From Lachnospiraceae bacterium (GTDB lineage: Bacteria > Bacillota > Clostridia > Lachnospirales > Lachnospiraceae), in NCBI GenBank assembly GCA_017617545.1, contig JAFZVZ010000006.1, forward strand, positions 122,568 to 186,567: 64,000 nucleotides of DNA, read 5' to 3'. Each line of letters starts with the position of its first letter. Within the stretch, counting starts at the first letter, position 1. The notes under the pieces are model-generated. The model did no database searches. It was not told the origin of the DNA and worked only from the letters and a program-made list of their open reading frames with translations. Shown here piece after piece: positions 3,336 to 62,844 of the stretch. Position numbers and translations under genes: made by a program.

Positions 3336-4274
3336 ATGAGTAAACCGTTAACCGCTCTCAAAACCAACATTCAGAAGGTCATCATCGGCAAGGACGATGT
3401 GATTGACGAGTTGTTCGCTGCGCTGCTTGTCGGCGGACATGTCCTCATCGAGGATGTCCCCGGAACCGGCAAGACGACGCTCGCGAAGGCACTCGCTGCT
3501 TCGATTTCCGGCGCTTTCGCCCGTATTCAGTTCACGCCCGACCTGTTGCCGTCGGACATCACCGGCATCAACTATTTCAACCGCAAGAAGGATGACTTTG
3601 TGCTGCGTTACGGTCCGGTCTTCACCAACATTCTGCTCGCGGACGAGCTGAACCGTGCGACGCCTCGTACGCAGTCGGCTCTTCTGGAGTGTATGGAGGA
3701 GAAGCAGGTCACCATCGACGGTGTCACCTACTCGCTCGCCGCTCCGTTCTTCGTAATCGCTACGGAAAATCCGATCGAGACCGCAGGTACGTTCCCGCTG
3801 CCCGAGGCGCAGCTCGACCGTTTCCTGATGCGTCTGCCGATGGGATATCCGACGCAGGAGGAGGAGATGAGCATCCTCAACCGCTTCAAGACCGACAACC
3901 CGCTTGATTCCCTCCAGCCCGTGTACACGCAGGAGGATATCGTTGCGATGCAGCAGGCGTACATCAAGGTGACGATCCATCCGATCCTTCAGAAGTACAT
4001 CCTCGACATCGTTGCGGCAACCCGCAGCAACCCGAAGGTTCCGATCGGCGCTTCGCCGCGTGCTTCGCTTGCTCTGCAGAACGTTGCCAAAGCTTACGCG
4101 TTCATCCAGGGCCGCAGTTACGTGACGCCTGAGGACATCGTCCACCTGGCATGCCCGGTGCTTGCGCACCGTCTCTGCATCGGCCGTGGCGCGTCCCACA
4201 GCGCTTCCCAGACGCTGCCGATCATGAAGGACATCCTCTCGAAGGTTCCGGTCCCGACGGAGAGCTGGAGCTGA
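3336..4274 (+). CDS. MoxR-family AAA+ ATPase
   Basis: A 312-residue cytosolic AAA+ ATPase of the MoxR group, whose members act as chaperones that activate or mature other protein complexes. Walker A GTGKTT is at residues 43-48, Walker B ILLADEL near 99-105, and sensor 1 ATENPIE follows; length is typical. AGGAGG at 3321 sets the start. MoxR genes normally sit next to DUF58 and von Willebrand-type genes. Here the next gene is convergent and no DUF58 gene follows, so this is an orphan and its client is unknown. A shared terminator lies 60 bp downstream. Confidence 0.9.
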   Translation: MSKPLTALKTNIQKVIIGKDDVIDELFAALLVGGHVLIEDVPGTGKTTLAKALAASISGAFARIQFTPDLLPSDITGINYFNRKKDDFVLRYGPVFTNILLADELNRATPRTQSALLECMEEKQVTIDGVTYSLAAPFFVIATENPIETAGTFPLPEAQLDRFLMRLPMGYPTQEEEMSILNRFKTDNPLDSLQPVYTQEDIVAMQQAYIKVTIHPILQKYILDIVAATRSNPKVPIGASPRASLALQNVAKAYAFIQGRSYVTPEDIVHLACPVLAHRLCIGRGASHSASQTLPIMKDILSKVPVPTESWS

Positions 4275-4336
4275 TCCGGTGCCCCGCGACCGCGGGGAGC
4301 TCTCGAATGCTTGGAATTGAATTTTCCGAAGACACA

Positions 4337-4372
4337 AAAAAGGCTGCCGCAGCAACTGCGACAGCCTTTCTC
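4337..4372. terminator. Bidirectional terminator between moxR-type gene and foldase gene
   Basis: Stem AGGCTG-CGCAG with CTGCG-CAGCCT around a short CAA loop, with an A-run on the left and a T-rich run on the right. It can serve both converging genes. Confidence 0.8.
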
Positions 4373-4387
4373 ATTATCTTTTTGTGA

Positions 4388-5633: not shown

Positions 5634-6635
5634 TCACAGCACCGACAGCACGATACCGGTGATGACCACCGCCGCGCACAGCAGCTTCTGCACGATCTTC
5701 TTCTCACGGAACACAAGCCAGCCGCCGAGGATCGTCACGATCGTGCACGCCTGCTTGAGGACCGTCATCACGATGACGCGACTCTCCGCGTACCCGTTGG
5801 CGATGAACAGTGCCCGATCCGCGATCACAAACAGAATGCTCAGGCCCCAGATCCACGGGTTCTTCAGCATTCCTCGCACGTTCAGACGGATTTTGCGCAC
5901 AAGCACATACAACACGTAAAATGCGACCATGAACACCATGTACCACAGCTGCAGCTGTCCGCTCGTAAGGTCGCCGTCGCTCATCAGCACCTTGTCCATG
6001 TTGCCGCTGACCGCGTTTAAGAAGCACGACACCATCGCGAGGAAGACATAGAAGCCTCTGCTGTGGCCGCTCTGCGGGGTCTCCGCCTCCTCGGCGGACG
6101 GAACGGTAGTCTCGGGCGCCGGGGTCTCATTTTCCGTAATCTCCGCGCGGTCCGCGTTCCCGGAATCGTCCGTTTTCTCCTCATCCGCGGCGTCGTCCTT
6201 CACAAACCGCAGAAGGAACAATCCGAGGCACACAACCACGATACCCGCGCACTGCCACACCGACGGGCGCTCCCCGAGCACGAGAATTCCCAGCATCGCG
6301 GAAAATACAACCCGCGCCATGTCGAGGATCCCGTAGACGCTCACGGGCATGCGCCGAAGCGCGCGAAAGCCGCAGATCCACGCCACGAAGATGACGAAGG
6401 ATTTGACGGCGATGGCCGCGTACTGCTCTGCCCGAAGGCCGAACAGATACTGCTTCGCGCCCATGTCGCCGACCGCGATCTCCGCTGCCGTCGTGCCGAT
6501 CACTATAACGAGGGAAAGCACGGTGTAGAGGACCAGTACCTCGATAACCGTGCTTTTGACCATTGCTTTTTTCTTGAAAATCTCCCGTGCCCCTTTCAGA
6601 ACACCGTATAGGAGCACACACGAAATCCAAACCAT
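5634..6635 (-). CDS. EamA-type (DMT superfamily) transporter
   Basis: A 333-residue membrane protein with two EamA repeats of about five helices each, the architecture of drug/metabolite exporters. The first repeat ends with MARVVFSAMLGILVLGERPS and the second with GGWLVFREKKIVQKLL, the typical helix-4/5 hairpin of the family. Between the repeats lies an acidic, Glu/Thr/Pro-rich cytoplasmic linker (about residues 147-195) that is longer than usual. The substrate cannot be predicted. The start lacks a strong ribosome binding site; it lies 88 bp downstream of the preceding lipoprotein gene on the same strand and may depend on its transcript. Confidence 0.82.
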   Translation of the reverse strand: MVWISCVLLYGVLKGAREIFKKKAMVKSTVIEVLVLYTVLSLVIVIGTTAAEIAVGDMGAKQYLFGLRAEQYAAIAVKSFVIFVAWICGFRALRRMPVSVYGILDMARVVFSAMLGILVLGERPSVWQCAGIVVVCLGLFLLRFVKDDAADEEKTDDSGNADRAEITENETPAPETTVPSAEEAETPQSGHSRGFYVFLAMVSCFLNAVSGNMDKVLMSDGDLTSGQLQLWYMVFMVAFYVLYVLVRKIRLNVRGMLKNPWIWGLSILFVIADRALFIANGYAESRVIVMTVLKQACTIVTILGGWLVFREKKIVQKLLCAAVVITGIVLSVL

Positions 6636-8112: not shown

Positions 8113-8185
8113 CGTATCAACCCTTTCCGATACCATTTTCCGACAGTCGCTTCCCGACCGCAATCGTTTTTCTGTCTACAGTCAG

Positions 8186-8240: not shown

Positions 8241-8274
8241 AGTTCTAACAAAAATATTACGGAAAATGTCACAC

Positions 8275-8756: not shown

Positions 8757-9955
8757 ACGCCCAGCTCCTTCTTGTACTTCTCTTCCTCTGCGTCGTTGCA
8801 GTGCACGAAATGTCCCGGAACGATCTCACGCAGAGACGGCTTGTCCGTCGAGTAATCGTGCTCCGCGAGCGCGTTGTACACGATACGCGTGCGCTTCTTC
8901 TCCGAGCGCGGATCCGGAAGCGGAATGGCCGAGAGAAGGGACTTCGTGTACGGATGAAGCGGATGCGCAAAGAGCTCGTCCGACGTCGTCAACTCCACCA
9001 TTTTACCGAAATACATAACGCCGATGCGGTCGGAGAAGTATTTTACGACCGAAAGATCATGCGCGATGAACATGATGGTGAGGTCAAACTGCTCCCGAAG
9101 CTCATTCAGAAGGTTGATGACCTGTGCCTGGATCGACACGTCCAGAGCGGACACCGGCTCGTCGGCAATGATCATCTCGGGACGCATCACGACGCTTCTG
9201 GCGATACCGATTCTCTGTCTCTGTCCGCCGGAAAATTCGTGCGGATACCGGCCCGCGTGCTCACGCACGAGACCTACCAGCTCGAGGATCTCGTACACGC
9301 GCTCATCGATGTATTCCTTGTCCTTGATACCGTTGATGATCAGACCTTCCGAGATGATCTCGCGGACCGTCATACGAGGGTCAAGCGACGCGATCGGGTC
9401 CTGGAAGATCATCTGGATCTTCGTGATCAGGCGCGTCTTCGACGCGATGCTGCGCTCCTTGCGGTACTCCTTGCGAAGCTTCGAAGCCTCCTCGGGCGAC
9501 TTGGCTTCCGCGATCAGCTTCTTGTATTTCTCGTCCGTCTCGGCGACCAGCTTCCTGGCGTATTCCTTGTCGCACATCTTGTGGTCATACCGCGCCTTGG
9601 TGATCTCCTTGCGGCTGTCCTCGATCTCTTTCTCAAGCTCCGCACGGCGCGATTCGTCCGTGCAGGTCTTCAGCTCCTTGCGCGCTGCCTTGATGGCATC
9701 CTTGTACGTACGGACGCCTGCGCAGATGCGCTGCCCCTTGAAATAGATGCTGCCGCCCGTGATGTCGTAGATCTTCAGGATGGATCGTCCGGTGGTCGTC
9801 TTGCCGCAGCCCGACTCGCCGACAAGGCCGAACACTTCGCCCTTGCGGATCTCAAAGCTGACATCGTCCACAGCCTTGAACTCGCTTCTGCCCATCTTGA
9901 AGCTCTGTGTCAGGTGATCGACCTTCAGCAGGACTTCCCTTTTATCGTCTTCCAT
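8753..9955 (-). CDS. oppF: Oligopeptide ABC transporter ATP-binding protein OppF, with insertion
   Basis: One of the two ATPases energising oligopeptide import. Walker A GESGCGKT is at residues 46-53, the Q-loop QMIFQDP at 181-187, the signature FSGGQRQR at 241-248 and Walker B MIIADEP near 261-267. Between Walker A and the Q-loop there is a charged, probably coiled-coil insertion of about 90 residues (82-172) that usual OppF proteins of about 320 residues lack. The protein is 400 residues if translation starts at 9955, where GGAGG precedes the ATG; the upstream in-frame codons are discounted. It follows oppD by 99 bp and is coupled to the DUF3899 gene. Confidence 0.9.
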
Positions 9956-10054: not shown

Positions 10055-12277
10055 TTACGCCTCCGCCTCCGCTGCCTCGTTCTTCTTTCTCATCCGCTCG
10101 ATACGGTCGGAGATCGTCTTCGGGATCTCCACCTTCGGAGCATCCGGATGCAGCAGCCAGGTTGCCGCCCAATGCGTATCGGAAACCGCGAACTGCGGCG
10201 GCTGCTCCTCGTAGTCGATCTGCATCGCGTATTTGTTACGCGCGGCAAATGCATCCCCCTCCGGAGGGTAGATCATGTTCGGAGGAGTGCCGGGGATGGC
10301 ATCCAGTTTTTCCTTGGTATCCAGGTCCGGCATGGACGACAGGAGCGCCCATGTGTACGGATGGCGGGGATCGTAGAACACATCGTCCGCCGTGCCATAC
10401 TCAACGATCTTGCCGGCATACATGACCGCGATATCGTCCGCCATGTTGGCGACGACGCCGAGGTCGTGCGTGATGAACACAACGGAGAGATTACGCTCCG
10501 CCTTCAGCTTGTTGATCAGCTCCAGGATCTGCGCCTGAATGGTAACGTCCAGAGCCGTCGTAGGCTCGTCGCAGATCAGGATGTCCGGGTCAGCCGCAAG
10601 CGCGATCGCGATAACGATACGCTGGCGCATACCGCCGGAAAATTCAAACGGATACTGGTTGTAGCGGATACGCGGCTCGGAGATACCTACTTCCTTCATC
10701 AGACGGATGGCCTTCTCCTTCGCGATACGCTTGTTGATCTTGTAAACCGCCTGTGATGCCTGATGGCGGAACCACTCGATCATCTCGGTAGCGCGGGCAG
10801 CCGTGTTGCCGTTCGTATCGTTCTCGATATAGTCGCGGTAGCGCTCATCCTGCGTCGCCACAACCTTCGAAACCTCCTCCCGGAGTTCCGCGAGATCGCG
10901 GACACGCTTCGGAACAACCTTCCAGTCGACCTTCTTGCCGCGGGCGATCAGCGCCTCACGCTTCTTCGACTGACGGGCGAACCGTGCCTCCTCCTTGGGA
11001 TTATGCTTCGTAAAATAGAAATACTGCTCGATCGCGTGCAGCAGGCTGCTGCGGAATGTATACGCATAGCTGTCCTTGACGATCTCGAGCTCATCGATGG
11101 AGTTCTCCACGCCGCTCGCCAGCTTCTTGGCGTACGACTTCGCCGCGGACTTCGTGTAAGCGCCTTCGTAATATGTCTTCGCGCTGTCGAGCTCCGCGAG
11201 GATCTCCTTCTTCTTCCCGATCGACTGCTCGTGGGAATAGCGAATCGCCTGATCAACGTACTCCGTGAACTCGTTGAGGAATTCATCGCGCAGGCACGCG
11301 CTCGTCTTCTTGTTGATCGCCGCCGTATCCAGGCTCTCAATATCCTGGGCGGAATGCTTGTACTCATAGTAACCGATGCTCAGGAAATCCGGTGTCTCTC
11401 TCTCGACCAGACCTCCTACCAGCTCGCGGACACGCTCCAGGATGTCGCGTACGGTATCGATGGCGGAGGATTTGTCCTTACCCGCGAGACGGTACACGGT
11501 TCTGGCGGAGCGAAGCTCATCCACGAACTTGTCAATGCACGAATCGATGCTGCCCGCCGGCAGTTTCGCGCCTTCCTCAAGCTTGAGGTCACTGATGTTA
11601 CCCTTCGTCAGGAAGCGGTTCTTCGTGCGGCGCAGCTTGGCTGCGCAATCCTTGAGCTCGAACTTGACATTGACCTTCTGGCCCTTCTCCTGAAGGAACA
11701 GGAAGTCTCCGATACTTTCATGCAACTCATCCGCGTAGGAGTACGCCGTATTGTACGCGGTCTCCTCCTTGAGGGCAGACATATTGTAGCTGTCGAACGC
11801 CTTGATCATCTCCGCGATCTTCGCTTCCTCGCCGGGCTTTGCCAGCATCATGTTTTTGCGAAGCTTCGAAAGAGTCCGGTTGAACTCCTTGCGCGCGCGG
11901 CGGCGGTTGCCTTTATTTTTCAAAAGCATCGCCTCAGTGATCTGGCGGCCGATCTTGACGATCGGATTCAGGGACGAGAGCGGATCCTGGAAGACCATGG
12001 AGATCTTGTCACCGCGGATCTTGCACATTTCATCCTCGGGGATCTTCAGAAGGTCCTTGCCGTCGTAGAGGATCTCGCCTCCGTCGACGATCGCGTTACC
12101 CGCGAGAATGCCGAGGATGGAGCGGGACGTGACGGATTTGCCGGAACCGGACTCGCCGACGATCGCGAGTGTCTTGCCGCGCTCGAGGTTAAAGGAGATA
12201 TCCCGGACCGCCTTGAGCGTTCCACCCTGAGTGCGGAATGAAATTTTGAGGTTTTTCACTTCCAGAATATTAGCCAT
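10055..12277 (-). CDS. oppD: Oligopeptide ABC transporter ATP-binding protein OppD, with large insertion
   Basis: The partner ATPase of OppF, but 740 residues instead of about 330-350. Walker A GESGSGKS is at about residues 40-47 and the Q-loop SMVFQDPLSSLNP near 93-105; the signature FSGGMRQR only begins at residue 546 and Walker B DILICDEP near 565. About 400 residues (roughly 119-520), rich in Lys, Glu and Ala and probably helical, are inserted in the helical subdomain. The C-terminal oligo/HPY region keeps its shape (GDAFAARNKYAM...TWLLHP) but lacks the four Cys that bind a 4Fe-4S cluster in some relatives. GGAGGAG precedes the ATG; oppC ends three bases upstream. Confidence 0.9.
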   Translation of the reverse strand: MANILEVKNLKISFRTQGGTLKAVRDISFNLERGKTLAIVGESGSGKSVTSRSILGILAGNAIVDGGEILYDGKDLLKIPEDEMCKIRGDKISMVFQDPLSSLNPIVKIGRQITEAMLLKNKGNRRRARKEFNRTLSKLRKNMMLAKPGEEAKIAEMIKAFDSYNMSALKEETAYNTAYSYADELHESIGDFLFLQEKGQKVNVKFELKDCAAKLRRTKNRFLTKGNISDLKLEEGAKLPAGSIDSCIDKFVDELRSARTVYRLAGKDKSSAIDTVRDILERVRELVGGLVERETPDFLSIGYYEYKHSAQDIESLDTAAINKKTSACLRDEFLNEFTEYVDQAIRYSHEQSIGKKKEILAELDSAKTYYEGAYTKSAAKSYAKKLASGVENSIDELEIVKDSYAYTFRSSLLHAIEQYFYFTKHNPKEEARFARQSKKREALIARGKKVDWKVVPKRVRDLAELREEVSKVVATQDERYRDYIENDTNGNTAARATEMIEWFRHQASQAVYKINKRIAKEKAIRLMKEVGISEPRIRYNQYPFEFSGGMRQRIVIAIALAADPDILICDEPTTALDVTIQAQILELINKLKAERNLSVVFITHDLGVVANMADDIAVMYAGKIVEYGTADDVFYDPRHPYTWALLSSMPDLDTKEKLDAIPGTPPNMIYPPEGDAFAARNKYAMQIDYEEQPPQFAVSDTHWAATWLLHPDAPKVEIPKTISDRIERMRKKNEAAEAEA

Positions 12278-12280
12278 GAA

Positions 12281-14828: not shown

Positions 14829-14984
14829 ACCGACGACTCCTTACCTTCGAATACGGAACATACATGTTGTATTATACCATACCGTGAAGGCGATTTCATT
14901 ATTTTTCTCATTATTTTTCTTTCGGAAAATGTCGATTCTGACCGTTTTTTTGACTCTTTCCGGCTGGGGATCGGCATTTTCCGA

Positions 14985-17643: not shown

Positions 17644-17770
17644 AACATCATCCTTTCTTTGCTAATGACTTTCGTTCCGCGCCCCGTTCTTCGGAAAATT
17701 CTCCGGCTCCCCGGGGGAGCCCCGCGCAAATCCCGAATCGGCGCGAACCGTCCATTATTACAACAGAGAC

Positions 17771-20218: not shown

Positions 20219-20278
20219 GTTGCCTCCCTTTATCGGAAAATGCGCGTCCGCATCTCCGAAACTGTTTTATGTCAGTTT

Positions 20279-23487: not shown

Positions 23488-23561
23488 TAAAAGGCGATCC
23501 TGCCGGAACAGCAGGACCATTTTCCGGGTACGAATTTCACATTTTCCGGGGCTCTTTGCTT

Positions 23562-46853: not shown

Positions 46854-47914
46854 TACTGTACACTTCTCCTTATTCTTCCTACCGCCAGATTCAGCAGCGA
46901 AAATACCGCGAACATCCCCGCAAGGATCAGGGCCGCGCTCGCGACGTAGTCGCTGTGACCCATCGTGGACAGCTCGACGAGCGCCCGGTTCTCATGGTAG
47001 ATCGGGTCCAGGTGCTTGAGCCAGTCGGGGTTGGACGAGAACATGTACGTCTCGAAGCTGCCTCCGATATAGCCGAGAAACCACACGATGCCGAAGGAAA
47101 TGATGACCGACGCAAGCATGCTGTTGGTCAGCTCGTAGATGAACATCTCCATCGCCGTCGCCGCCATGACCGAGAGCACCACAAGCGCCGCGGACAGAGC
47201 GATATTGCCCCAGTGAACGCCCATGATCACGCCGCCGATCACCGCCGCGACACCGATGCCGCACGACACAACCGCCACGAGCGGGATAAACCGCGCCAGG
47301 TACAGTTGAAGCACCGAGAGGTTTGACACGCGAAGTCTCTCGTCGATCCGGTGCTTCTTCTCATTTGAGAACAGACCCGCCGCGCAGACGAGCGCGCACC
47401 AGCCGAAATAGACGATGTAGATGATGCCGTAGTAATCGGTCGAATTGACGGCGGGAACGAAGAACGGCTGCTCGGTCTTGAAACTGACAGCGCTGAAATC
47501 CCCGCTGATCACCCCGTTCACCATCGCGGAAAGCATGTACTGGAGCGTCCCGCTCTCCGTCTTCGTGTCCTGCGTCTCATAGATCGTGTAGCTGTCGCTT
47601 CCGAACACCGCGAAGCAGGCAAGCTTGTTGTCCTTGATCAGCGTCTCGGGATCGCCGTCCCGGTACTCCGCGAACGACACTCCATTTTCCCGACCGGTCT
47701 CGACGATCGCATTCATGTAGCCGTCGAACACACTGTTCTCCTCCACGCGGTAGCCGACCGTGAACTGCCCCGCGCCCTCGTAGCTCTCCATCATCGCGGA
47801 AAATGCGCTCACCAGCACGGCAGTGACCACGATCGGGCAGAGTACGTACAGAAGGATGTTCACCGGGCTGCGGAACATTATTTTCAGATTGTTTTTGATC
47901 AAATATCGAATCAT
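46853..47914 (-). CDS. ABC-2 type permease, first permease of the operon
   Basis: A 353-residue membrane protein with the same layout as the next gene: an N-terminal helix, an outer domain (about residues 45-180) and five or six C-terminal helices (GIIYIVYFGWCALVCAAGLF onward). The start is ATG 47914 after GGAG; the longer open frame upstream overlaps the ATPase gene and is discounted. Stop and next start overlap as TAATG. Confidence 0.88.
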   Translation of the reverse strand: MIRYLIKNNLKIMFRSPVNILLYVLCPIVVTAVLVSAFSAMMESYEGAGQFTVGYRVEENSVFDGYMNAIVETGRENGVSFAEYRDGDPETLIKDNKLACFAVFGSDSYTIYETQDTKTESGTLQYMLSAMVNGVISGDFSAVSFKTEQPFFVPAVNSTDYYGIIYIVYFGWCALVCAAGLFSNEKKHRIDERLRVSNLSVLQLYLARFIPLVAVVSCGIGVAAVIGGVIMGVHWGNIALSAALVVLSVMAATAMEMFIYELTNSMLASVIISFGIVWFLGYIGGSFETYMFSSNPDWLKHLDPIYHENRALVELSTMGHSDYVASAALILAGMFAVFSLLNLAVGRIRRSVQ

Positions 47915-47939: not shown

Positions 47940-48725
47940 TTACTGATCGCGCAGCTTCTTGCCCGTGAGGGTGAGGAACACTTCCTCGAGCGTGATGTGC
48001 TCGGTGTCGTCGACGACAAGCTTCTTCAGCTCCTCGCTCGTGCCGACCGCGATGACCTTGCCGTTGTCCATGATCGCGATGCGCGTGCAGATTGCCTCGA
48101 CCTCCTCCATGTAGTGGCTCGTATAGATGACGGTCGTGCCGTTCTTGTTCGATTCCTTGATCTTCTCAAGGATGAAATTTCTCGACTGCGGATCGATGCC
48201 GACCGTCGGCTCGTCGAAGATCAGCAGGTCCGGATGATGCCCGATCGCGCAGGCGATGTTGAGACGGCGCTTCATACCGCCGGAAAATTTCTTCGCGTAA
48301 TCGTTCTTCCGCTCGGAAAGCCCTACGTACGCAAGCGACTCGTCGATGCGCTTCCTAAGCTCCTCGCCCTTGATACCGTACAGCGACGTGAAGAGCTCCA
48401 CATTTTCCCACGCCTTAAGACTGCCGTGGATCGCGAGGTGCTGCGGAATGTAACCAAGGTGGCGGCCCAGCTTCTTCCGGTTCTTCCGAAAATCCTCACC
48501 CATGAACTCGATCCGCCCGAAATCCGGCTTCACGATGTTGCAGATCATGTTCATGGTCGTGCTCTTGCCCGCGCCGTTGGGGCCGAGCAGGCCGAAGATC
48601 TCACCCTTTCTGATCTCGATGTTCAGGCTGTCCACCACCGCCCGATTGTCATATTTCTTGGTCAGGTCCACCAGCTTCAGTATCGTCTCCGCCGCCTGAT
48701 CGCCATTGTTAAACAGTTCTTCCAT
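47940..48725 (-). CDS. ABC transporter ATP-binding protein (LnrL-like)
   Basis: A 261-residue ATPase: Walker A GPNGAGKST near residue 48, Q-loop YIPQHLAIHG, signature KFSGGMKRRL, Walker B LLIFDEPTVGIDP. It is the first gene of the operon ATPase-permease-permease-kinase-regulator, the same gene set as the lnrJKLMN (linearmycin resistance) locus of Bacillus subtilis in a different order. Two adjacent ATGs are possible (48728, 48725); the second has the better spacing to GGAGG. Confidence 0.9.
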   Translation of the reverse strand: MEELFNNGDQAAETILKLVDLTKKYDNRAVVDSLNIEIRKGEIFGLLGPNGAGKSTTMNMICNIVKPDFGRIEFMGEDFRKNRKKLGRHLGYIPQHLAIHGSLKAWENVELFTSLYGIKGEELRKRIDESLAYVGLSERKNDYAKKFSGGMKRRLNIACAIGHHPDLLIFDEPTVGIDPQSRNFILEKIKESNKNGTTVIYTSHYMEEVEAICTRIAIMDNGKVIAVGTSEELKKLVVDDTEHITLEEVFLTLTGKKLRDQ

Positions 48726-48896
48726 CATTTTCCTCCGTATCGATTGCGCCCGTTGTTGTTTCCCCTTTGTGCGTATCCTCCGCCGGGCGTCCGTTCTTGT
48801 TGAGCATAGAATAACAGTTCCCCGGAAAATGCGGTAGTGAGAAAAGAAACATTATCGACATGACTTTCGTCACTTTCCGACGGGCACACAAAAACA

Positions 48897-48975: not shown

Positions 48976-49971
48976 TCATCGGTACATCCCCTCCAGTTCC
49001 TTGATTTTCCGCTTGAAATCCGAGACGACCTCAGCGGGCCCGGTGATGCGGACGCCGTCGCCGAGGGCGAAGATCCAGCCGAAGAAATGAGTGCTCATCG
49101 AGACGTCCACGAAGGTCTCCGACCAGCCGTCCTCCGCGACGGGGTAGATGGGGATGTCGCTGCCGAAACGGTCGATCATCACGCCCACGAGCTCGTTGCG
49201 GAAGGTCAGGTGCACCTTGGTCTTCTCGCCGCCGAACATGCCGAAACTCATCTTGGAGTATTGGGCGAGGTTGAACTCGCGGAACCGGTCGCGGCCGATG
49301 CGCCGCTTCTCGAGCACTTCGATCTTCTTCATCTTGTCGACCCGAAAATGCTTGATACCCTCGGCTTCCTCGTCGTACGCGATCAGGTAGTAGTTCTCGT
49401 CGTCCCAGGTGAGTGCCCAGGGGCTGACGGTGTACGGCTCTTCGCGGTGCGGCACCATGCGCTTGTCCGTGTTCCACTGCATGTATTCGAAGCGGATCTG
49501 CCGGTTGTCGGCGATGGCGCGGTGAACATCGTCCACGAAGTAGTAGATGCTCTCGTTCATCGTCTTCACGCGGCCGTGTACGAACACCTGCCTCTTCAGC
49601 TGCTCAGCCTCGTATTGGCTCGCCATGCTCGTCAGCTTGCGGATCAGCTCGTTGGACTTCTTCTCGGTGATGAATTTGGACGACTGGATGGCGTCCACGA
49701 GAAGCTTGAGCTCCGCGATCTCGAACTGCTTGCAGCCGACATGGTAGTAGAAATTCCGGCCGACCTTCTCGCCGATCACGTCGATCCCAAGCACCTTAAG
49801 AGCCTCGATGTCATCGTAGATGCTCTTCCGGTCCGCGGTCACGCCGTACGCCTCGAGCGCCTGGAGGATCTCCGGCATGGTGATCATGTGCTCATCGTCG
49901 GTCTTCTCCGTCATGATGCGGCTCAGATAGTACAGTTTCAGTTTCTGGTTAGCTCCCTTCGGCATCTTCAT
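48976..49971 (-). CDS. WYL-domain transcriptional regulator
   Basis: A 331-residue regulator: an N-terminal helix-turn-helix (MITMPEILQALEAYGVTADRK region, about 30-60), then a WYL domain (PWALTWDDENYYLIAYDEEAEGIKHFRVDKM, of which WALTWDDENYYLIAYD is the landmark) and a WCX domain at the C-terminus. WYL proteins sense nucleotides or oligonucleotides and are frequent regulators of defence and DNA-repair loci. It lies 77 bp downstream of the HIRAN gene on the same strand but has an extended -10 of its own. Confidence 0.9.
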   Translation of the reverse strand: MKMPKGANQKLKLYYLSRIMTEKTDDEHMITMPEILQALEAYGVTADRKSIYDDIEALKVLGIDVIGEKVGRNFYYHVGCKQFEIAELKLLVDAIQSSKFITEKKSNELIRKLTSMASQYEAEQLKRQVFVHGRVKTMNESIYYFVDDVHRAIADNRQIRFEYMQWNTDKRMVPHREEPYTVSPWALTWDDENYYLIAYDEEAEGIKHFRVDKMKKIEVLEKRRIGRDRFREFNLAQYSKMSFGMFGGEKTKVHLTFRNELVGVMIDRFGSDIPIYPVAEDGWSETFVDVSMSTHFFGWIFALGDGVRITGPAEVVSDFKRKIKELEGMYR

Positions 49972-52571: not shown

Positions 52572-53867
52572 CTACTCACACTGCTCAACCCATTCTCCCG
52601 CGAAGGAAAGCGGCACATTGGTCAGCCACTCCTGCACGCGGTAATCAGCCATGGAGAGACGCAACGCCACTGCCTTCACATCAGCCTCATGCAGTGTCTT
52701 GAGGCTCTTGGAGCGGAGATTTTCCTCTGCCTTTACTTCGACCATGTAGAGACGGTCCTTTTGGAACACAAAATCGATTTCCAAAGTGGAATTCTCTCTG
52801 GAGTAGTAATACGGATGCAATCCGTGCACCAGCATTTCCTGGAACACATACTGCTCCGTGAACGCTCCCTTGTATTCCGTGAAAGCATCATTTTTCACAA
52901 GAACATCCTTCGCGGGCACGTCAACCATCGCCCCCAGGAGACCGAGATCAAGACAATATAGTTTGAACGCAGACGAATCTTCATAGAATTTCAGCGGTTT
53001 CTCAACCTTCGAGACGCGGTTCACTTTATGTACCAGTCCCGCGTTGGAGAGCCACTCGATGGCATCCTCAAAATCCTTAGCACGCGCGCCTTTTTTCAGC
53101 GCCCCATAGATGAATTTCTTATTTTCCTTTGCAAGCTGCACGCCCAGGGAATCCCAAACGAGCCTTACTTTAGGGAGAAGGTCAGCCGGAATGTGTTTTG
53201 AAAAATCTCTGCGGTAGTCTGCCAAAATCTGTTTTTGGATCTTGCGTGTCGCTGCCAGATCCTGATTGGCGACGTATTCCTTCACGACCTCCGGCATACC
53301 ACCGACATAGTAGTATTGTCGCAGTGCCTCCGTATAGACCCGCATTACCGCCTGCAACTGATCCCACCGATATTCCTTCAGCTGCTGCACCAAAACGTCT
53401 TTCTCCAATGCCATCAGAAACTCTTCGAACGAGAGCGGGTACATATCGATCTCGTCCACTTTGCCGACCGGGAACCCGCTCCCCGAATGGATCTCAATCC
53501 CGAGCAGACTTCCGGCTGCCGCGATATGATACTCCGACGCTTCCTCGCAGAAATATTTCAACGCTGTCAACGCTGCCGGCACCTCCTGGATCTCATCCAG
53601 GATAACCAGCGTTTCTCCGGCTTGAATGGATACTCCCGTCAATGCGGAAAATGCCCTGATCAACCGCGCAGTATCATAATCCGCAAACAAATTCTTTGCT
53701 TCCGGCGTCGAGTCAAAATTCAAATACGCGACATTTCGGTATTCATTAGCTCCGAATTCCTTCAAAAGCCATGTCTTTCCGACCTGTCTGGCCCCGTACA
53801 CAATCAACGGTTTTCGTTCATTTTTCTCTTTCCAACGAAGCAATTCTTTATAGACAATTCTTCTCAT
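52572..53867 (-). CDS. AAA ATPase with DUF4143 domain (COG1373 type), copy 2
   Basis: A 431-residue protein of the same family as 33602-34942 but only distantly similar. Walker A GARQVGKT is at residues 25-32, Walker B TLVILDEIQEVP near 86-97, AGSLLGIE near 117. The C-terminal DUF4143 part shows FKLYCLDLGLLGAM, EQYVFQEM and the nuclease-like LEIDFVFQ...MVEVKAEENL (D-x-n-E-x-K). Role of the family is unknown. Its promoter is overlapped by four 33-bp-spaced repeats, and an 84-bp palindromic array lies beyond them. Strong terminator at the end. Confidence 0.88.
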   Translation of the reverse strand: MRRIVYKELLRWKEKNERKPLIVYGARQVGKTWLLKEFGANEYRNVAYLNFDSTPEAKNLFADYDTARLIRAFSALTGVSIQAGETLVILDEIQEVPAALTALKYFCEEASEYHIAAAGSLLGIEIHSGSGFPVGKVDEIDMYPLSFEEFLMALEKDVLVQQLKEYRWDQLQAVMRVYTEALRQYYYVGGMPEVVKEYVANQDLAATRKIQKQILADYRRDFSKHIPADLLPKVRLVWDSLGVQLAKENKKFIYGALKKGARAKDFEDAIEWLSNAGLVHKVNRVSKVEKPLKFYEDSSAFKLYCLDLGLLGAMVDVPAKDVLVKNDAFTEYKGAFTEQYVFQEMLVHGLHPYYYSRENSTLEIDFVFQKDRLYMVEVKAEENLRSKSLKTLHEADVKAVALRLSMADYRVQEWLTNVPLSFAGEWVEQCE

Positions 53868-54651: not shown

Positions 54652-56481
54652 TTAGTTTCCCTTGTAGAACGGGTTGCCCTCCTCCAGGATGAACGCGGCG
54701 CGGACGATCGCGTTGATCTTCTCATTGTCCGGACCGGAGCACGCGTAGAGAACCTCGAAGAAGCTCTTCGGATCCGCGTTGGAAAATGCGTTGCGGCGCA
54801 CGTACTCGCGCAGAACCGCGTAGAAATCTTCCTGCCCGAGGACTTCCTCGAAGGCCTCCAGCACGATCTCGCCCATGCTGTAGATCGAGTAGGTGTAGCG
54901 GTAGTCCGTGCTGTAATCATGAACACCGCGGTTGATCGGAAGCATCTCCGATTCACGCTGGCGCTCCACGTAGTCTTCGTCCATGAACAACGGTGCTATC
55001 AGCGTGGGATCCTCGATCGTCACATAGGGCGGTGTCATGTCGCCGCCGTGCGCGTTGACGTAGTCCGCGAAAACCTTCTCGGTGTAGGAGGTGATGGATT
55101 CGTCCTGCCACGGCTGCAGGCCGGAATCGCTTCCGACGATGCCCATGAACCACTGGTGTCCGACCTCGTGCGCGACCGTGATCTGAAGATCGTAGTACTT
55201 CGCGCCGCCGTTCGGATTATCCTTGTGCCCGTAGATAAACATGTCCTCACCGATCTGGATCAGGTTCGGGTACTCCATACCGCCGCCCGCAGTCATCGGC
55301 GTGAGAACGATGTCGAGCTCCTCGTAAGGGTAGCGGCCGAACGCCTCGCCGAACGCAGCCAGGGCATTTTTCGCCGCGATATGCGTATACTGAACGACCT
55401 CCGTCATGTCGGCGCTGATATAGTCGTCCTTGTACCAGACGTTGACGCGAACGCCGTCGTCGGTCTCCGAGCCGACAGAGAACTTCGATGACGCGGAAAA
55501 TACGAAATCTCTCACGGCAGGCGCGGTCACTGTGTACGTCACGCTGTCACCGACGTCCGCGCTCCCCTTCTCCACGCCGGTCGCCGCGACCTCATAGCCT
55601 GTGGGAACCGTGAGGCGAACGTCGTAGTCCGCGGTCTCGGAGTAGAAGCACTCGCCGTGCAGGTAGTACGCAACGTGCGACCAGCCGTCCTTCGTGTACT
55701 CCGCGAGGATCGGGTAGAAATTGGTCACGTTGTAGATCTTCTTCGTGTAGCCGAAGCGGTCGTCAATACCGGGGATCTTCGCCGTAAAATCATACTCGAG
55801 CGTCATCGTCTCGCCCGGCTCCAGCGGCTGCGTGAGCTCGATCCACAGGACGGAAACGTCGGTGTCGCGCGTGTACGTGAGCTCCGAATTGTCGCGGCCG
55901 TCCTTGATATTTTCGATGACCGTCATCGCGCCGTTCTCATTCACGCTATACTCGTACCCAAGCTTCACCGGATCGGTGAACAGGCTCGGGTAATCGCGCA
56001 TGCAAAGGCGTCCCCAGGTGTCGATCGAATCGTTGTAAAAGCGGAAAATAACGTGTCCGCCGATGGTATTGTTCTCGGTATCCAGCGTGAGATCCATGTC
56101 ATAGTGGTAGAGATCCCGCGTCGGCATTTCAATGGCGCAGCCCTTCGCGGGAGCCGCAAGTCCCTGACCGTACGTACCCGGTGCCGGAGTAGGCGTTGCC
56201 TCGCCAGGAGTGGGTGTCGGCGTGGCCGTTGCCTCTGCAGGCGTCGGCGTTGCCTCGCTCGGAGTCGGTGTCGCCTCGTTAGGCGTGGGCGTCGGTTCCT
56301 CCGTAGGCTGTGCGTCCGTCGGCACAGGCTCGCTCGTCGGCGTCACCGCCTCCGTGGGCTTCTGCTCCGTCGTCGGAGTTGTGTCTCTGCGCTTTCTCTC
56401 ATCCTCACCGCCGTTATTGCCGCAGGCCGTGAGCGCCAGCAACAAAATGACGATCAAAAGTATCGATGTGATCCGTTTCAT
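54652..56481 (-). CDS. M1-family metallopeptidase lipoprotein, paralogue 2
   Basis: A 609-residue paralogue of 37534-39309. Signal peptide with lipobox LTAC, a longer stalk (repeats of EATPTPSEATPTPAE type, DNA 56180-56350), the M1 beta domain, GGGMEYP and HEVGHQW with DESITSYTE as zinc-site motifs. Both paralogues share the phrases YNVTNFYPILAEY and GHQWFMGIVGS. ATG 56481 follows GGAAGGGGAAG; the open frame upstream is discounted as it lacks a signal peptide. Own promoter and terminator. It probably digests peptides at the cell surface. Confidence 0.87.
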   Translation of the reverse strand: MKRITSILLIVILLLALTACGNNGGEDERKRRDTTPTTEQKPTEAVTPTSEPVPTDAQPTEEPTPTPNEATPTPSEATPTPAEATATPTPTPGEATPTPAPGTYGQGLAAPAKGCAIEMPTRDLYHYDMDLTLDTENNTIGGHVIFRFYNDSIDTWGRLCMRDYPSLFTDPVKLGYEYSVNENGAMTVIENIKDGRDNSELTYTRDTDVSVLWIELTQPLEPGETMTLEYDFTAKIPGIDDRFGYTKKIYNVTNFYPILAEYTKDGWSHVAYYLHGECFYSETADYDVRLTVPTGYEVAATGVEKGSADVGDSVTYTVTAPAVRDFVFSASSKFSVGSETDDGVRVNVWYKDDYISADMTEVVQYTHIAAKNALAAFGEAFGRYPYEELDIVLTPMTAGGGMEYPNLIQIGEDMFIYGHKDNPNGGAKYYDLQITVAHEVGHQWFMGIVGSDSGLQPWQDESITSYTEKVFADYVNAHGGDMTPPYVTIEDPTLIAPLFMDEDYVERQRESEMLPINRGVHDYSTDYRYTYSIYSMGEIVLEAFEEVLGQEDFYAVLREYVRRNAFSNADPKSFFEVLYACSGPDNEKINAIVRAAFILEEGNPFYKGN

Positions 56482-56592: not shown

Positions 56593-56651
56593 CAAGAATA
56601 CGGAAAATGTATGAAAATTCCGCGGAAATGCGGAATTTCGCCCCACGCAAC

Positions 56652-59898: not shown

Positions 59899-61042
59899 CG
59901 ATAACACCCGCCTCTCCGGCCACCGCCTTCATCACGTCCATCTCCTCGTCGGAGATGTCGCAACCGTACATGAGCTTGTAGAAATCCCGGATCAGCTCCG
60001 AGAAGTCCTTCTTCTCCCCATTTTCCAAAATATCCACCTGCTCGACCGACTTCACATGGGAATTGTCGTAGTCGATCTTCACGGTATTGGGATAGGTCTG
60101 TCGGAAAATGCCCATCGCGTCGTTAACGATGTCCTCATCCGTCAACGTCGCGTAGATAAAATCCTCCGGGCGGGTCACGTTATCCCGCGCCAGGAGTTCC
60201 TTGATCGGGCCGCGGATGTGCCTTAAGTCCCGAAGCGGCTTCAGCGGAACAAGCTCGATCGTGATCGTCCCATCGGCCTCCACCGTGATCAGCGGGACAG
60301 ACTTCTCGTCATCGGCCTCCCGCAGGGAGTACTTCAGCGGCGAGCCCGAGTAGCGGACCTCATCTCTCCCGATCCGCTGCGGGCAATGGATATGCCCCAA
60401 AGCGACATAGTCGAACTCCTCAAAGCAGTCGCACCCGATCTTCTCCACAAGGCCGACGCTCTGCGTTCCGATGCTCTCCGAACCGCCGAGCACCGGGTCC
60501 TCGCCCGTTCCCGTGACAAACTGATGCGCAACCAGAATGTTCGTGTGCGTTTTGTCGAGCTGCGTGTTCTGCAGGATCACGCGCACGGCGTCATCGTAGG
60601 TGTTGATCTTCGCGTCCGGGAAGAAATGACGCACCTGCGAAGCTTTTACGAACGGAAGCATGTACACGTCAACCACGGTATCTCCGCTGACAAGGCTTTC
60701 CTTGTGCAGCGTACCGTCAAAAACCGACGAAATATACACCTGTTTCGATGCGAAAAATGTTCTTCCGAAGTTCAGGCGGTCATCCGAATCATGGTTGCCG
60801 CTCACGAGGAACACGCGGATGCCGCGCTTGGACAACTCCACCAGAAAATAATCCAGAAGCCGCGTGGCTGCCTCGCTCGGGATCGCCTTGTCATACACGT
60901 CGCCCGCGATCAGCACGCCGTCCACCGAATCCGTATCCGCAAGCTCGAGGATGCGATCAAGTATATATTTCTGATCCTCGATCAGATCAAATTCATGGAG
61001 AGTCTTCCCCAAATGCAAATCCCCAAGATGTATAAATTTCAT
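59885..61042 (-). CDS. sbcD: Exonuclease subunit SbcD
   Basis: The 385-residue Mre11-type nuclease subunit of SbcCD. Phosphoesterase motifs: GDLHLGKTL (residues 7-15), GDVYDKAIP, SGNHDSDDRL, and GHIHCPQRIG. The C-terminal part has the SbcD capping domain. GGAGGAGG precedes the ATG. It heads the sbcDC operon. Confidence 0.95.
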   Translation of the reverse strand: MKFIHLGDLHLGKTLHEFDLIEDQKYILDRILELADTDSVDGVLIAGDVYDKAIPSEAATRLLDYFLVELSKRGIRVFLVSGNHDSDDRLNFGRTFFASKQVYISSVFDGTLHKESLVSGDTVVDVYMLPFVKASQVRHFFPDAKINTYDDAVRVILQNTQLDKTHTNILVAHQFVTGTGEDPVLGGSESIGTQSVGLVEKIGCDCFEEFDYVALGHIHCPQRIGRDEVRYSGSPLKYSLREADDEKSVPLITVEADGTITIELVPLKPLRDLRHIRGPIKELLARDNVTRPEDFIYATLTDEDIVNDAMGIFRQTYPNTVKIDYDNSHVKSVEQVDILENGEKKDFSELIRDFYKLMYGCDISDEEMDVMKAVAGEAGVIDETD

Positions 61043-61197
61043 CTGAAACCTCCTCCGTTACAAAGGTTTTCTCAACTGCTACCGGTCTATGTCGTAATTC
61101 TATACCATGGGCTGTCCGATAAAACGGACCGTTATTTTACGACTAATTCGGGACCACGAGCATGCCCCGCAAGGTCCGAGGAAGGGCCTCTCTTCCG

Positions 61198-62844
61198 CTA
61201 GTTTGCAGCATTTTCCGTAAAATTCTGCTCCGTCTGAGCAGGCGCTGCGTCCTTCACGATCAGCTCCTTCTCCTTGAAGAACAGCTGCGTGACGAGATAG
61301 CCGCCGATGGCTGAGATCAGGAGCGATGCCATGTAGACGATCGCATTTTGCACGAAACCGTGAGGGCCGGCGGTCATGACGAAGACGCCGAGGACGCCGG
61401 ACGGGCCCCAGGTCGTGGAGGCGACCTCCATGGTCATGATAAATGCTCCGCCGAAGCCGGCGCCGATGCTCGCGGTAACGAACGGCCGCCCGAGGGGCAG
61501 CGTGACACCGTAGATCAGGGGCTCTCCGACGCCGAGGACGCCTGCCGGGAGTGCCGCGTTAGCAACACGGCACAGGGCTTTGTTGCCCACGCGCTTGGCC
61601 TTGCGGATGATTGCGATCGCGGCGCCGACCTGTCCCGCGCCGGCCATGGCCAGGGCAGGATAGAGGATGACGTAACCAATCTCCTGGAGCTGCACCGTGT
61701 AGAGCGCGACGAGGCCGTGGTGCATACCCGTCGCCACCAGCGGCAGGAACAACGCGGCTGATATGTAGCCGGTGATCACGCGGACGATCACGCTCTTGGA
61801 GAGGCAAAGCTTGCCGATCGCGGACGCGATCCCGCCGGAGATGAAGCCGAACACCGGCATGACGATGCCGATGTAGAGCACCGCGCAGGTCACGATCGCG
61901 AGGAACGGCGTGAGGATCATTTGCAGACTATCCGGTATCTTCCTGCGAAGTCTTTTCTCGATGATGGAGAGGATGTAAACGCCGAATATGACAGCAAGCA
62001 CGCCGCCCTTTCCCGCGCACAGCACGGACGAAAGCGGCATTTGCTCATCGTAGAGGCCGAGCGCCGACGAGATCTTGTTGATGCCGTCGAGTGAGGTGAT
62101 CATGCCGAGCATGCCGCCGAGGATCGGCGTCGCGCCGAAGCGCTCCGCCGCGCGGTAGCCTGCCCACGCGGTCATGTAGGTCATGAACGAGGCGCTGATC
62201 AGCGTCAGAAAATTGTAGAGCACGCTCAACGGTTTGCTGTCCGCGTACCCCGGGCACAGCTGCGTCAACATCGCGGCAAAGCCCGCGCACAATCCCGCGG
62301 TCATCACGCCCGGGATCAGCGGTATGAAAATGCCGCCGATGATCTTGAGGAATTCCTTGACGCGGAATTTTTTGGAAGATTCGGCTGCCTGAGATTTCGC
62401 GGGTTTTGAGGTCTGCGTCGCAGCGGTCTTTGCGGTTTTTTCGGTTGCTGCCTCAGCAGTCTTCTCAGCTTTCTTTACGGTCTCCGAAGCCGCTGTCTCA
62501 GCAGTCTTCTCGACTTTCTTTACGGTCTCAGCGGCCTTAGCCTCAGCAACCTCCGTCGCTGCCTCCGCAGTCTCCACCGCTTCCGCGCCCTTCGCGAGCT
62601 CGGCGCGAAGCATGTCGCCGTACTTCTTGCTCTTTCCGGGGCCGACGACGATCTGGTAGTACTGCTCTTTGTCATGCACGAGGCCGAGCACACCATCCAT
62701 CGTCTCTAAGGGAGTGATGTCCGTCAGGCTCTCGTCCTTCACTGTGATGCGGAGGCGTGTCATGCAATTTTCCGCGGAAACAATGTTGTCCGCGCCGCCC
62801 ATGCAGCGGATGATCAACGCGATCTTGTCTTCATATTCACTCAT
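61198..62844 (-). CDS. PTS EIIBC component of the glucose superfamily (MurP/SacP-like), with long linker
   Basis: A 548-residue PTS permease. The EIIB domain (1-85) has the phosphocysteine C27 in ENCMTRLR. The EIIC domain (from about 170) has about ten helices and GEPLIYGVTLPLGRPF with MHHGLV, as in transporters for N-acetylmuramic acid, sucrose or beta-glucosides. Between them lies an unusual Ala/Glu/Lys helix of about 80 residues with AETVKKVEKTAE repeats. The EIIA domain is absent, as in MurP and SacP types. No murQ or glycosidase gene is adjacent, so the sugar is uncertain. GAGAGGT precedes ATG 62844. Confidence 0.85.
   Translation of the reverse strand: MSEYEDKIALIIRCMGGADNIVSAENCMTRLRITVKDESLTDITPLETMDGVLGLVHDKEQYYQIVVGPGKSKKYGDMLRAELAKGAEAVETAEAATEVAEAKAAETVKKVEKTAETAASETVKKAEKTAEAATEKTAKTAATQTSKPAKSQAAESSKKFRVKEFLKIIGGIFIPLIPGVMTAGLCAGFAAMLTQLCPGYADSKPLSVLYNFLTLISASFMTYMTAWAGYRAAERFGATPILGGMLGMITSLDGINKISSALGLYDEQMPLSSVLCAGKGGVLAVIFGVYILSIIEKRLRRKIPDSLQMILTPFLAIVTCAVLYIGIVMPVFGFISGGIASAIGKLCLSKSVIVRVITGYISAALFLPLVATGMHHGLVALYTVQLQEIGYVILYPALAMAGAGQVGAAIAIIRKAKRVGNKALCRVANAALPAGVLGVGEPLIYGVTLPLGRPFVTASIGAGFGGAFIMTMEVASTTWGPSGVLGVFVMTAGPHGFVQNAIVYMASLLISAIGGYLVTQLFFKEKELIVKDAAPAQTEQNFTENAAN

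What the first reader, a model, noticed from the sequence alone, without database searches (positions are those of the whole stretch)
3763..62774. A genome-signature octamer, CGGAAAAT, is enormously over-represented
I count at least 45 copies (30 plus, 15 minus) in 64 kb, about one per 1.4 kb; roughly 1-2 are expected for a sequence of about 57% G+C. A further 20 or so copies of GGAAAAT have another first base. Copies lie in coding regions and in gaps, often next to terminators or promoters (4321, 14976, 24328, 27586, 41916, 56601). In genes they force A/T-ending codons such as AAT and TTT where AAC and TTC prevail: the ABC signature Phe-Ser-Gly-Gly is spelled with this octamer in oppF (9229), oppD (10636) and the LnrL-like ATPase (48291). 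Density and behaviour resemble DNA uptake sequences of Neisseria and Haemophilus, or Chi/KOPS-type sites, none of which is known with this sequence to me. The 2:1 strand bias may reflect replication direction.
Basis: partly seen in the sequence, partly recalled or inferred. Interest (0 to 1): 0.88.

Follow-up and report, generated by a model that had tools for sequence, protein, structure and literature searches.

The report
Genome-wide self-DNA label in gut bacteria
A rumen bacterium carries about 1,800 copies of one eight-letter DNA word scattered over its chromosome, in a pattern that looks like the 'take up my own kind's DNA' labels known so far only from two families of Gram-negative bacteria.

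Summary
CGGAAAAT occurs 47 times in the window (31+/16-; 2.9 expected) and 1,797 times in the 2.73-Mb genome (869/928; 17 for the reversed word). Amino acids and codon usage do not explain it: 179 copies in sampled genes against 16.2 +/- 3.6 after synonymous codon permutation. In genes it runs equally with and against transcription (80:80) in all six frames, and it has no leading-strand bias (262:282); the same test detects Chi polarity in E. coli (46:19). Extended consensus: TTYTTCGGAAAATGC. 38 of 56 aligned site pairs are intact (16.4 expected). Two prophages in a sister species have 3 copies in 74 kb; their flanks have 30 in 66 kb. Ten of 22 genomes of this rumen Lachnospiraceae genus carry it at 480-707/Mb; several sister genomes favour a one-base variant, CGGCAAAT, and two show little of either. 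T2SSE-type ATPases were found in 22 of 22, ComEC in 20 of 22. Best explanation: a DNA uptake sequence, which would be the third known family and the first Gram-positive one. Uptake itself is untested. Chi- and KOPS-type readings are rejected.

The parts
919..926 (+). CGGAAAAT site, coding (antisense, VFSE)
   Evidence: genes as called by my own script; starts approximate, here and below
3763..3770 (+). CGGAAAAT site, coding (sense, TEN)
4321..4328 (-). CGGAAAAT site, intergenic, 46 bases after a gene end
6129..6136 (-). CGGAAAAT site, coding (sense, TEN); not intact in G389
6299..6306 (+). CGGAAAAT site, coding (antisense, VFSA)
8135..8142 (-). CGGAAAAT site, intergenic by my gene calls
8260..8267 (+). 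CGGAAAAT site, intergenic
9229..9236 (+). CGGAAAAT site, coding, Phe-Ser-Gly of an Opp-type ABC ATPase
10636..10643 (+). CGGAAAAT site, coding, Phe-Ser-Gly of an Opp-type ABC ATPase; CGGAGAAC in G391
14923..14930 (+). CGGAAAAT site, intergenic, first arm of a +/- pair 53 bases apart
14976..14983 (-). CGGAAAAT site, intergenic, second arm of the +/- pair
17692..17699 (+). CGGAAAAT site, intergenic
20234..20241 (+). CGGAAAAT site, intergenic; CGGAAAAA in G404
21298..21305 (-). CGGAAAAT site, intergenic; changed in G389
22381..22388 (-). CGGAAAAT site, coding (sense, RKI); changed in G389, G391, G404
23340..23347 (+). CGGAAAAT site, coding (antisense, HFP); intact in G385, G392, G398, G401
23519..23526 (-). 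CGGAAAAT site, intergenic, direct pair; changed in G385
23541..23548 (-). CGGAAAAT site, intergenic, direct pair; changed in G385
24328..24335 (+). CGGAAAAT site, intergenic between convergent genes
25794..25801 (+). CGGAAAAT site, coding (antisense, KFSE)
26208..26215 (+). CGGAAAAT site, coding (antisense, VFSD)
27526..27533 (-). CGGAAAAT site, intergenic, -/+ pair
27586..27593 (+). CGGAAAAT site, intergenic, -/+ pair
30665..30672 (+). CGGAAAAT site, coding (antisense, NFP)
31408..31415 (-). CGGAAAAT site, intergenic
32764..32771 (-). CGGAAAAT site, coding (sense, SEN)
35257..35264 (-). CGGAAAAT site, coding (sense, RKM)
35906..35913 (+). CGGAAAAT site, coding (antisense, AFSE)
37435..37442 (+). 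CGGAAAAT site, intergenic, context tttttCGGAAAATgc
38424..38431 (+). CGGAAAAT site, coding (antisense, VFSA)
40652..40659 (+). CGGAAAAT site, coding (sense, PEN); intact in G399, changed in G390 and G397
40981..40988 (+). CGGAAAAT site, coding (sense, RKM); intact in G399, changed in G390 and G397
41916..41923 (+). CGGAAAAT site, intergenic; intact in G399
43271..43278 (+). CGGAAAAT site, coding (sense, AEN); intact in G394, G398, G399, G401, changed in G388 and G392
45062..45069 (-). CGGAAAAT site, coding (sense, AEN); intact in G385, G389, G391, G399, G404
45798..45805 (+). CGGAAAAT site, coding (antisense, YFP); intact in G385, G389, G391, G404
47797..47804 (+). CGGAAAAT site, coding (antisense, AFSA); intact in G385, G389, G391, G404
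48281..48288 (+). CGGAAAAT site, coding, Phe-Ser-Gly of an ABC ATPase; CGGAGAAC in G385, G389, G391, G404
48823..48830 (+). CGGAAAAT site, intergenic
49004..49011 (-). CGGAAAAT site, coding (sense, RKI)
53645..53652 (+). CGGAAAAT site at the called 5' end of a minus-strand gene
55494..55501 (+). CGGAAAAT site, coding (antisense, VFSA)
56042..56049 (+). CGGAAAAT site, coding (antisense, IFR)
56601..56608 (+). CGGAAAAT site, intergenic by my gene calls
60102..60109 (+). CGGAAAAT site, coding (antisense, IFR), in the gene next to an SbcC-like ATPase (SbcD-like by recall)
61210..61217 (-). CGGAAAAT site, coding (sense, TEN) in a PTS EIIB/EIIC gene
62767..62774 (-). CGGAAAAT site, coding (sense, AEN) in a PTS EIIB/EIIC gene

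Best explanation
CGGAAAAT, with consensus TTYTTCGGAAAATGC, is the core of a DNA uptake sequence: a self-label that lets these rumen Lachnospiraceae prefer DNA of their own kind during natural transformation. Proposed mechanism (inferred): minor pilins at the tip of the type IV pilus bind the roughly 18-base site on free double-stranded DNA in either orientation, the pilus retracts, ComEA and ComEC bring a strand in, and recombination replaces the homologous chromosomal stretch. Fragments with a better site enter more often, so the site accumulates by biased uptake wherever coding constraint allows. It spreads without strand preference, is denser between genes, is conserved between species, and is scarce in recently arrived prophages. 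Shown here: the site, its statistics, its conservation, its prophage gap, its one-base sister variant, and the presence of pilus, ComEA and ComEC genes. Inferred: that these bacteria are competent, that uptake is biased, and which pilin reads the site.
For: Density of 658/Mb lies in the range printed for the known systems: 1,471 copies in H. influenzae and 1,965 in N. gonorrhoeae (table passage of PMC1852404); Hin-USS 'saturation at ~750' per Mb (PMC6776037). 11.1-fold over synonymous codon permutation with 0 mismatches, 2.2-fold with 1, 1.08-fold with 2, the graded decline described as molecular drive in PMC1939737 (passages). Sense:antisense 80:80, all six frames. Leading:lagging 262:282. 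Denser between genes (1.29/kb) than in genes (0.53/kb). Flank signal from -8 to +9, T-rich upstream, GC downstream. Conservation 38 of 56 site pairs, 16.4 expected. Prophages 3 in 73.9 kb, flanks 30 in 66.1 kb; 10 of 10 proteins tested from those regions match phage families. Close pairs (40 bases or less) 12 inverted to 2 direct. One-base variant CGGCAAAT enriched in sister genomes. ComEC in 20 of 22 genomes, T2SSE in 22 of 22. Own genome has PilB/PilT-type ATPases, a PilC-like gene, a prepilin peptidase, PilM, six prepilins, ComEA and ComEC. One prepilin, aligned from 11 relatives, best matches GspH / PRK10506 / ComGD models in 11 of 11, the class of FimT and ComGD and close to the predicted H. 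influenzae USS receptor, which resembles FimT.
Against: No uptake or binding experiment exists. Genomes with at most weak enrichment (G396, G402) also have the pilus ATPase and ComEC, so machinery does not predict the motif. The GspH/ComGD matches are below curated cut-offs in the member shown and lie mainly in the N-terminal helix common to pilins; the C-terminal GKV[ST] only half matches the FimT G-[R/K]-X-[R/K] motif. In S. [quoted passage not shown] My pattern found this pilin in 12 of 16 pilus loci, not in G404, a motif-rich genome. Pili may serve adhesion or twitching. Between genes, density is not highest at convergent gene ends (0.92/kb, 13 sites) but at divergent starts (1.57/kb, 24 sites), unlike terminator use in Neisseria. 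The prophage test rests on two prophages of one genome, with ends that I set by eye from GC and gene calls. Gene typicality showed no trend. DprA and other competence genes were not searched.
Confidence: 0.64

Rival explanations
1. Binding site of an abundant chromosome-organising or nucleoid protein that works in either orientation and needs dense coverage of the resident chromosome.
For: Non-polar, in genes and gaps, near-exponential spacing (CV 0.93), compact 18-base footprint, conserved, sparse in two prophages.
Against: I know of no such protein with about 700 asymmetric sites per Mb (recalled). The shift to a one-base variant and the weakness in sister species within one genus would need the protein to change or vanish quickly. 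No candidate gene was identified or searched for.
Confidence: 0.16
2. Sequence-specific mutation or repair bias creates the word without any use for it.
For: Enrichment in all frames and both strands with no gene preference; single-base neighbours at positions 1, 3 and 4 also enriched.
Against: The word is asymmetric, eight bases plus flanks, and 11-fold enriched over codon permutation. 38 of 56 site pairs are intact between species at 80-90% identity. A pure mutation bias must create the word from many starting words and also protect the product.
Confidence: 0.08
3. A Chi-like recombination site or KOPS-like translocation guide.
For: Over-representation of a non-palindromic octamer.
Against: No leading-strand bias (262:282, 95% interval 0.44-0.52) with a test that finds Chi bias in E. 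coli (46:19). Enrichment is 11-fold against 2.7-fold for Chi by the same null.
Confidence: 0.04
4. Methylation self-mark of a restriction or BREX-type defence system.
For: Non-palindromic word; sparse in two prophages.
Against: Such sites are normally not over-represented (recalled). The prophages hold 3 where composition predicts 6.9, only mildly below chance. Defence genes were not searched.
Confidence: 0.05
5. Artefact of codon usage, protein motifs, dispersed repeats or assembly.
For: Some copies encode recurrent peptides such as FSG and EN.
Against: 179 against 16.2 +/- 3.6 under synonymous permutation; dense between genes; no flank similarity beyond -8..+9; seen in ten genomes of the genus at high density.
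Confidence: 0.01

Closest known systems
Pasteurellaceae uptake signal sequence (Hin-USS AAGTGCGGT, Apl-USS ACAAGCGGT)
   Same: Density, both orientations, short core with an AT-rich extension, graded mismatch over-representation, few-base dialects between sister clades, USS-poor prophages in some cases (passages seen).
   Different: Different word, different phylum, cell without an outer membrane; uptake not shown. Many Pasteurellaceae prophages are USS-rich, unlike the two here.
Neisseriaceae DNA uptake sequence (GCCGTCTGAA and dialects), read by minor pilin ComP
   Same: About 1,900-2,000 copies per genome, inverted pairs, dialects, type IV pilus machinery (passages seen).
   Different: Few close inverted pairs here and no excess at convergent gene ends; no ComP relative identified; Gram-positive lineage.
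Chi sites of RecBCD/AddAB
   Same: Over-represented non-palindromic octamer.
   Different: Chi is polar and 2.7-fold enriched in the E. coli sample; this word is non-polar and 11-fold enriched.
HIP1 of cyanobacteria (GCGATCGC)
   Same: Highly iterated octamer in genes and gaps, lineage-specific (recalled; the HIP1 paper was seen only as a reference).
   Different: HIP1 is a palindrome; this is not.

Membership tests
DNA uptake sequence (DUS/USS) | Strong genome-wide over-representation not explained by composition or coding | tested here: met
   1,797 against 17 for the reversed word; 179 against 16.2 under codon permutation
DNA uptake sequence (DUS/USS) | No preference for strand, replication direction or transcription | tested here: met
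   869:928, 80:80, 262:282
DNA uptake sequence (DUS/USS) | Extended consensus and graded enrichment of near-matches | tested here: met
DNA uptake sequence (DUS/USS) | Lower density in recently acquired DNA | tested here: met
   two prophages of G385: 3 in 73.9 kb against 30 in 66.1 kb of flank; one genome only. Codon-typicality fifths of genes gave no trend; the lowest-GC fifth was lower
DNA uptake sequence (DUS/USS) | Inverted pairs used as transcription terminators | tested here: inconclusive
   12 inverted to 2 direct pairs within 40 bases, but convergent gene ends are not enriched
DNA uptake sequence (DUS/USS) | Type IV pilus, ComEA and ComEC present | tested here: met
   own genome; also present where the motif is weak
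DNA uptake sequence (DUS/USS) | Sequence-specific receptor among the minor pilins | not testable with these tools
   candidate GspH/ComGD-like pilin only
DNA uptake sequence (DUS/USS) | Natural transformation with preferential uptake of DNA carrying the site | not testable with these tools
   needs a cultured strain
Chi / KOPS polar sites | Bias to the leading strand | tested here: not met
   262:282; positive control Chi in E. coli 46:19
HIP1 | Palindromic GCGATCGC | tested here: not met
   CGGAAAAT is not its own reverse complement (sequence itself)

The most novel reading that the evidence does not exclude
A third, independently evolved DNA uptake-sequence system and the first in a Gram-positive phylum. 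Its dialects (CGGAAAAT, mixed CGGAAAAT/CGGCAAAT, and possibly others) split one rumen genus into partly separate gene-exchange groups and are read by the pilus-tip minor pilins.
Probability: 0.5. Interest if true: 0.93.

Novelty: new variant of a known kind. Interest (0 to 1): 0.86.

Why it matters
Uptake sequences are stated to be known from two Gram-negative families only (PMC12616744, passages seen). A Gram-positive case would show that self-labelling has evolved at least three times, that it does not depend on an outer membrane, and that it can be found from raw sequence. It would also give a genus with strong, mixed and weak forms for testing how a label and its reader change together, and it predicts that unstudied rumen bacteria are naturally transformable.

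Tried and rejected
Codon or peptide artefact: rejected by synonymous permutation. Dispersed repeat family: rejected, flanks are unrelated beyond -8..+9. Replication-linked strand bias: rejected. Chi/KOPS: rejected with a positive control. The first single 50-kb E. coli stretch was uninformative (9:8), so four more were fetched; the pooled five give 46:19.

Led nowhere or negative: motif density by gene GC, GC3 and codon typicality showed only a lower value in the lowest-GC fifth (0.35 against 0.46-0.56 per kb; GC3 similar) and no trend with typicality. A conjugative-element test was not possible: relaxase PF03432 is in 4 of 22 genomes and in none of the ten high-motif ones. T2SSE and ComEC do not separate motif-rich from motif-poor genomes. 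Pfam found only the N-methyl motif convincingly in the candidate pilin; the solved-structure search found only general pilins. Searching papers for the octamer as a string gave 658 papers; the 15 listed looked irrelevant by title, the rest I did not see. I did not fold the candidate pilin, because the folding tool names window sequences and loci from other tools than the one that gave this protein. A Neisseria or Haemophilus positive control was not run: none of the collections left to me holds them as whole genomes.

A claim that I dropped on checking: an inverted pair forming a 13-pair stem is identical in G000 (L038) and G385 (L147), but it sits in a 1,499-base stretch that is 99.1% identical between the two, far above their 84% elsewhere. 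It therefore shows recent exchange of that piece or a mobile gene, not slow conservation. Pfam names no family for the gene there.

Rows dropped: in the pooled leading-strand count, stretches with GC skew below 0.03 or shorter than 8 kb were left out (544 of 576 sites kept). In the conservation count, alignments under 76% identity or 400 bases were left out; one search is an earlier, overlapping count (33 of 51, 13.5 expected, ten relatives including G398). G386 entered the pilus tree with a paralogous locus and is to be ignored there; G391, G392, G397 and G399 could not enter it.

Full report
WHAT IS THERE. CGGAAAAT occurs 47 times in the 64-kb window, 31 on + and 16 on -, against 2.9 (sd 1.6, maximum 7) in 100 dinucleotide shuffles. 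It and the overlapping GGAAAATG have the two highest z-scores of all octamers in the window against a second-order Markov model. The window is bases 122,568-186,567 of contig 41 of a 2.73-Mb, 45-contig genome that holds 1,797 copies (869 forward, 928 reverse); the same letters read backwards occur 17 times. A conserved window protein (SbcD-like by recall) finds mainly Lachnospiraceae MAGs, the nearest (90% identity) from water-buffalo rumen, so the organism is a Lachnospiraceae bacterium, probably of the rumen.

NOT CODON USAGE. I called genes with a simple codon-usage gene finder of my own on the window plus sampled stretches of the same genome. In 370 kb there are 249 copies: 160 in genes (0.53/kb), 86 between genes (1.29/kb), 3 straddling. 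In genes, 80 are in the sense and 80 in the antisense direction, and all six frames are used. Permuting synonymous codons within each gene, which keeps every protein and each gene's codon usage, leaves 16.2 +/- 3.6 copies (20 runs, maximum 27) where 179 are observed in the 449-kb sample. The genes prefer AAC over AAT (74%) and TTC over TTT (68%), yet 42 of 42 Asn codons and 81 of 95 Phe codons lying wholly inside a site are AAT and TTT.

ANATOMY. Between genes the flanks read T at -8, A-rich at -7/-6, T at -5 to -1 (T or C at -3), then CGGAAAAT, then G (0.63) and C (0.43); beyond -8 and +9 there is no clear signal, so these are not copies of a longer repeat. Over-representation in genes falls from 11.1-fold (exact) to 2.2-fold (one mismatch) and 1.08-fold (two). 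Single changes at positions 1 and 3, and to C or T at position 4, are still 4- to 9-fold enriched; changes at 2, 5, 6 and 7 at most 2.4-fold; changes at 8 are below expectation. Spacing is close to random (CV 0.93). Pooling six high-density genomes (46 stretches, 949 kb, 576 sites), pairs within 40 bases are inverted 12 times and direct twice; at 41-100 bases 12 and 7. Divergent intergenic spaces are densest (1.57/kb, 24 sites), co-directional 0.95 (119 sites) and convergent 0.92 (13 sites), so the sites are not specialised as terminators.

NO POLARITY. Using GC skew to name the leading strand, 262 sites are on it and 282 on the other (p = 0.42; 95% interval 0.44-0.52; 544 of 576 sites usable). 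As a positive control, five 50-kb E. coli K-12 stretches gave Chi 46:19 by the same test (p = 0.001), and Chi's enrichment under the codon null was 2.7-fold (56 against 20.5). The window's 31:16 is p = 0.04 by itself and is not seen genome-wide (p = 0.17).

CONSERVATION AND FOREIGN DNA. Aligning own stretches with nine motif-rich relatives, 38 of 56 site pairs (26 distinct own sites, 15 of them intact in every relative aligned and 6 in none) are intact; words of equal A+T count and codon layout would give 16.4. Relatives also have 21 sites that the own genome lacks, so there is turnover. In G385 two regions with HK97-type capsid genes, lower GC and atypical genes stand out; 10 of 10 proteins tested there match phage families, among them integrase, terminase, head protease, tape measure and helicase. 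With ends set by eye, they hold 3 sites in 49.3 kb and 0 in 24.6 kb, against 15 in 30.7 kb and 15 in 35.4 kb of their flanks. Composition alone predicts 6.9 in the two prophages and 3.7 in the flanks.

DISTRIBUTION. All 22 genus genomes held were counted. Ten have 480-707 copies per Mb (G000, G385, G389, G391, G392, G394, G397, G399, G401, G404); the other twelve have about 135-307. Among 535 other genomes drawn from the class, order and family, the densest that I read in the tables is G280, 777 copies in 2.9 Mb (about 268/Mb), so the weaker genus members overlap with the outside range. CGGCAAAT, one base different, is enriched genome-wide in several sister genomes (G398: 909 against 130 for the reversed word; G393: 748 against 141; G384: 712 against 107) and less so in the own genome (352 against 61). 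Against the codon null it is enriched in the genes of G398 (20 against 2.1), G388 (19/2.9), G393 (15/1.8) and G395 (23/3.5); in G398 CGGAAAAT is also enriched (12/1.6 in genes, 16/2.6 between). G402 is weak (CGGAAAAT 11/8.5, CGGCAAAT 18/7.9 in genes), as is G396 (11/4.2 and 5/1.9). In a tree of PilB, PilT and PilC, the six motif-rich genomes that could be placed group with G398 (support 91).

MACHINERY. ComEC (PF03772) is found in 20 of 22 genus genomes; the two misses are 82% and 79% complete. T2SSE (PF00437) is found in 22 of 22; 17 of these have a full-length match at E of 1e-134 or better (PilB scale), G392 and G397 pieces, and G384, G399 and G400 (79-82% complete) only weaker matches. The own genome has PilB- and PilT-type ATPases, a PilC-like gene (by position and look, not run against Pfam), a prepilin peptidase, PilM and six prepilins in one locus, and ComEA near ComEC. 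One prepilin, found by my pattern in 12 of 16 pilus loci and aligned from 11 relatives, matches GspH (best 3e-9), PRK10506 (5e-9) and ComGD (5e-8) models in 11 of 11; the member shown in full stays below the curated cut-offs. In streptococci ComGD and ComGF at the pilus tip serve DNA capture (PMC12153270, passages), though in S. pneumoniae ComGF dominates (PMC12040237, passages). The predicted USS receptor of Pasteurellaceae resembles FimT, whose monoderm homologue is ComGD (PMC12616744 and PMC12040237, passages). The pilus and ComEC are also present in genomes where the motif is weak, so they permit the uptake reading but do not prove it.

INTERPRETATION. Density, orientation neutrality, extended consensus, mismatch gradient, conservation with turnover, paucity in prophages, a one-base dialect and competence-type genes together match DNA uptake sequences and no other known kind that I could test. 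[quoted passage not shown] My literature searches (listings only, open-licence PMC papers, no preprints) listed no Gram-positive uptake sequence. Function is inferred. A non-polar nucleoid-protein site is the main rival. I put the uptake reading at 0.64.

Noticed in passing
window 53949-54500: Intergenic repeat array: a 33-base tandem repeat followed by about 4.6 copies of an 84-base unit with inverted ends (AATTACTGT...ACAGTAATT); unrelated to CGGAAAAT.
   Followed up: partly
L038:952-2450 and L147:11089-12585: A 1,499-base stretch is 99.1% identical between the own genome and G385, which are about 84% identical elsewhere; it carries an inverted pair of CGGAAAAT sites forming a 13-pair stem. 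Recent exchange between species, or a mobile gene without a Pfam match.
   Followed up: partly
G390, G395, G396, G402 samples (for example L090-L093, L138-L140): Other over-represented cores in motif-poor relatives: GCAAAAGC/CAAAAGCG in G402 (47/11.8 and 43/9.6 in genes), AAATGTGA in G390, CGGAAAGC in G395 and G396. Possibly further dialects, possibly codon-pair effects.
   Followed up: no
genus, PF03432 and PF05065 searches: Relaxase genes occur in 4 of 22 genomes and in none of the ten motif-rich ones; an HK97-type capsid was found in 1 of 11 motif-bearing genomes searched. Perhaps few mobile elements where the motif is dense, or MAG binning loss.
   Followed up: partly
G388 sample (L124-L127): CTGCTACC/GGTAGCAG is enriched mainly between genes (12 against 0.2; 3 against 0.8 in genes), suggesting an unrelated intergenic repeat.
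   Followed up: no
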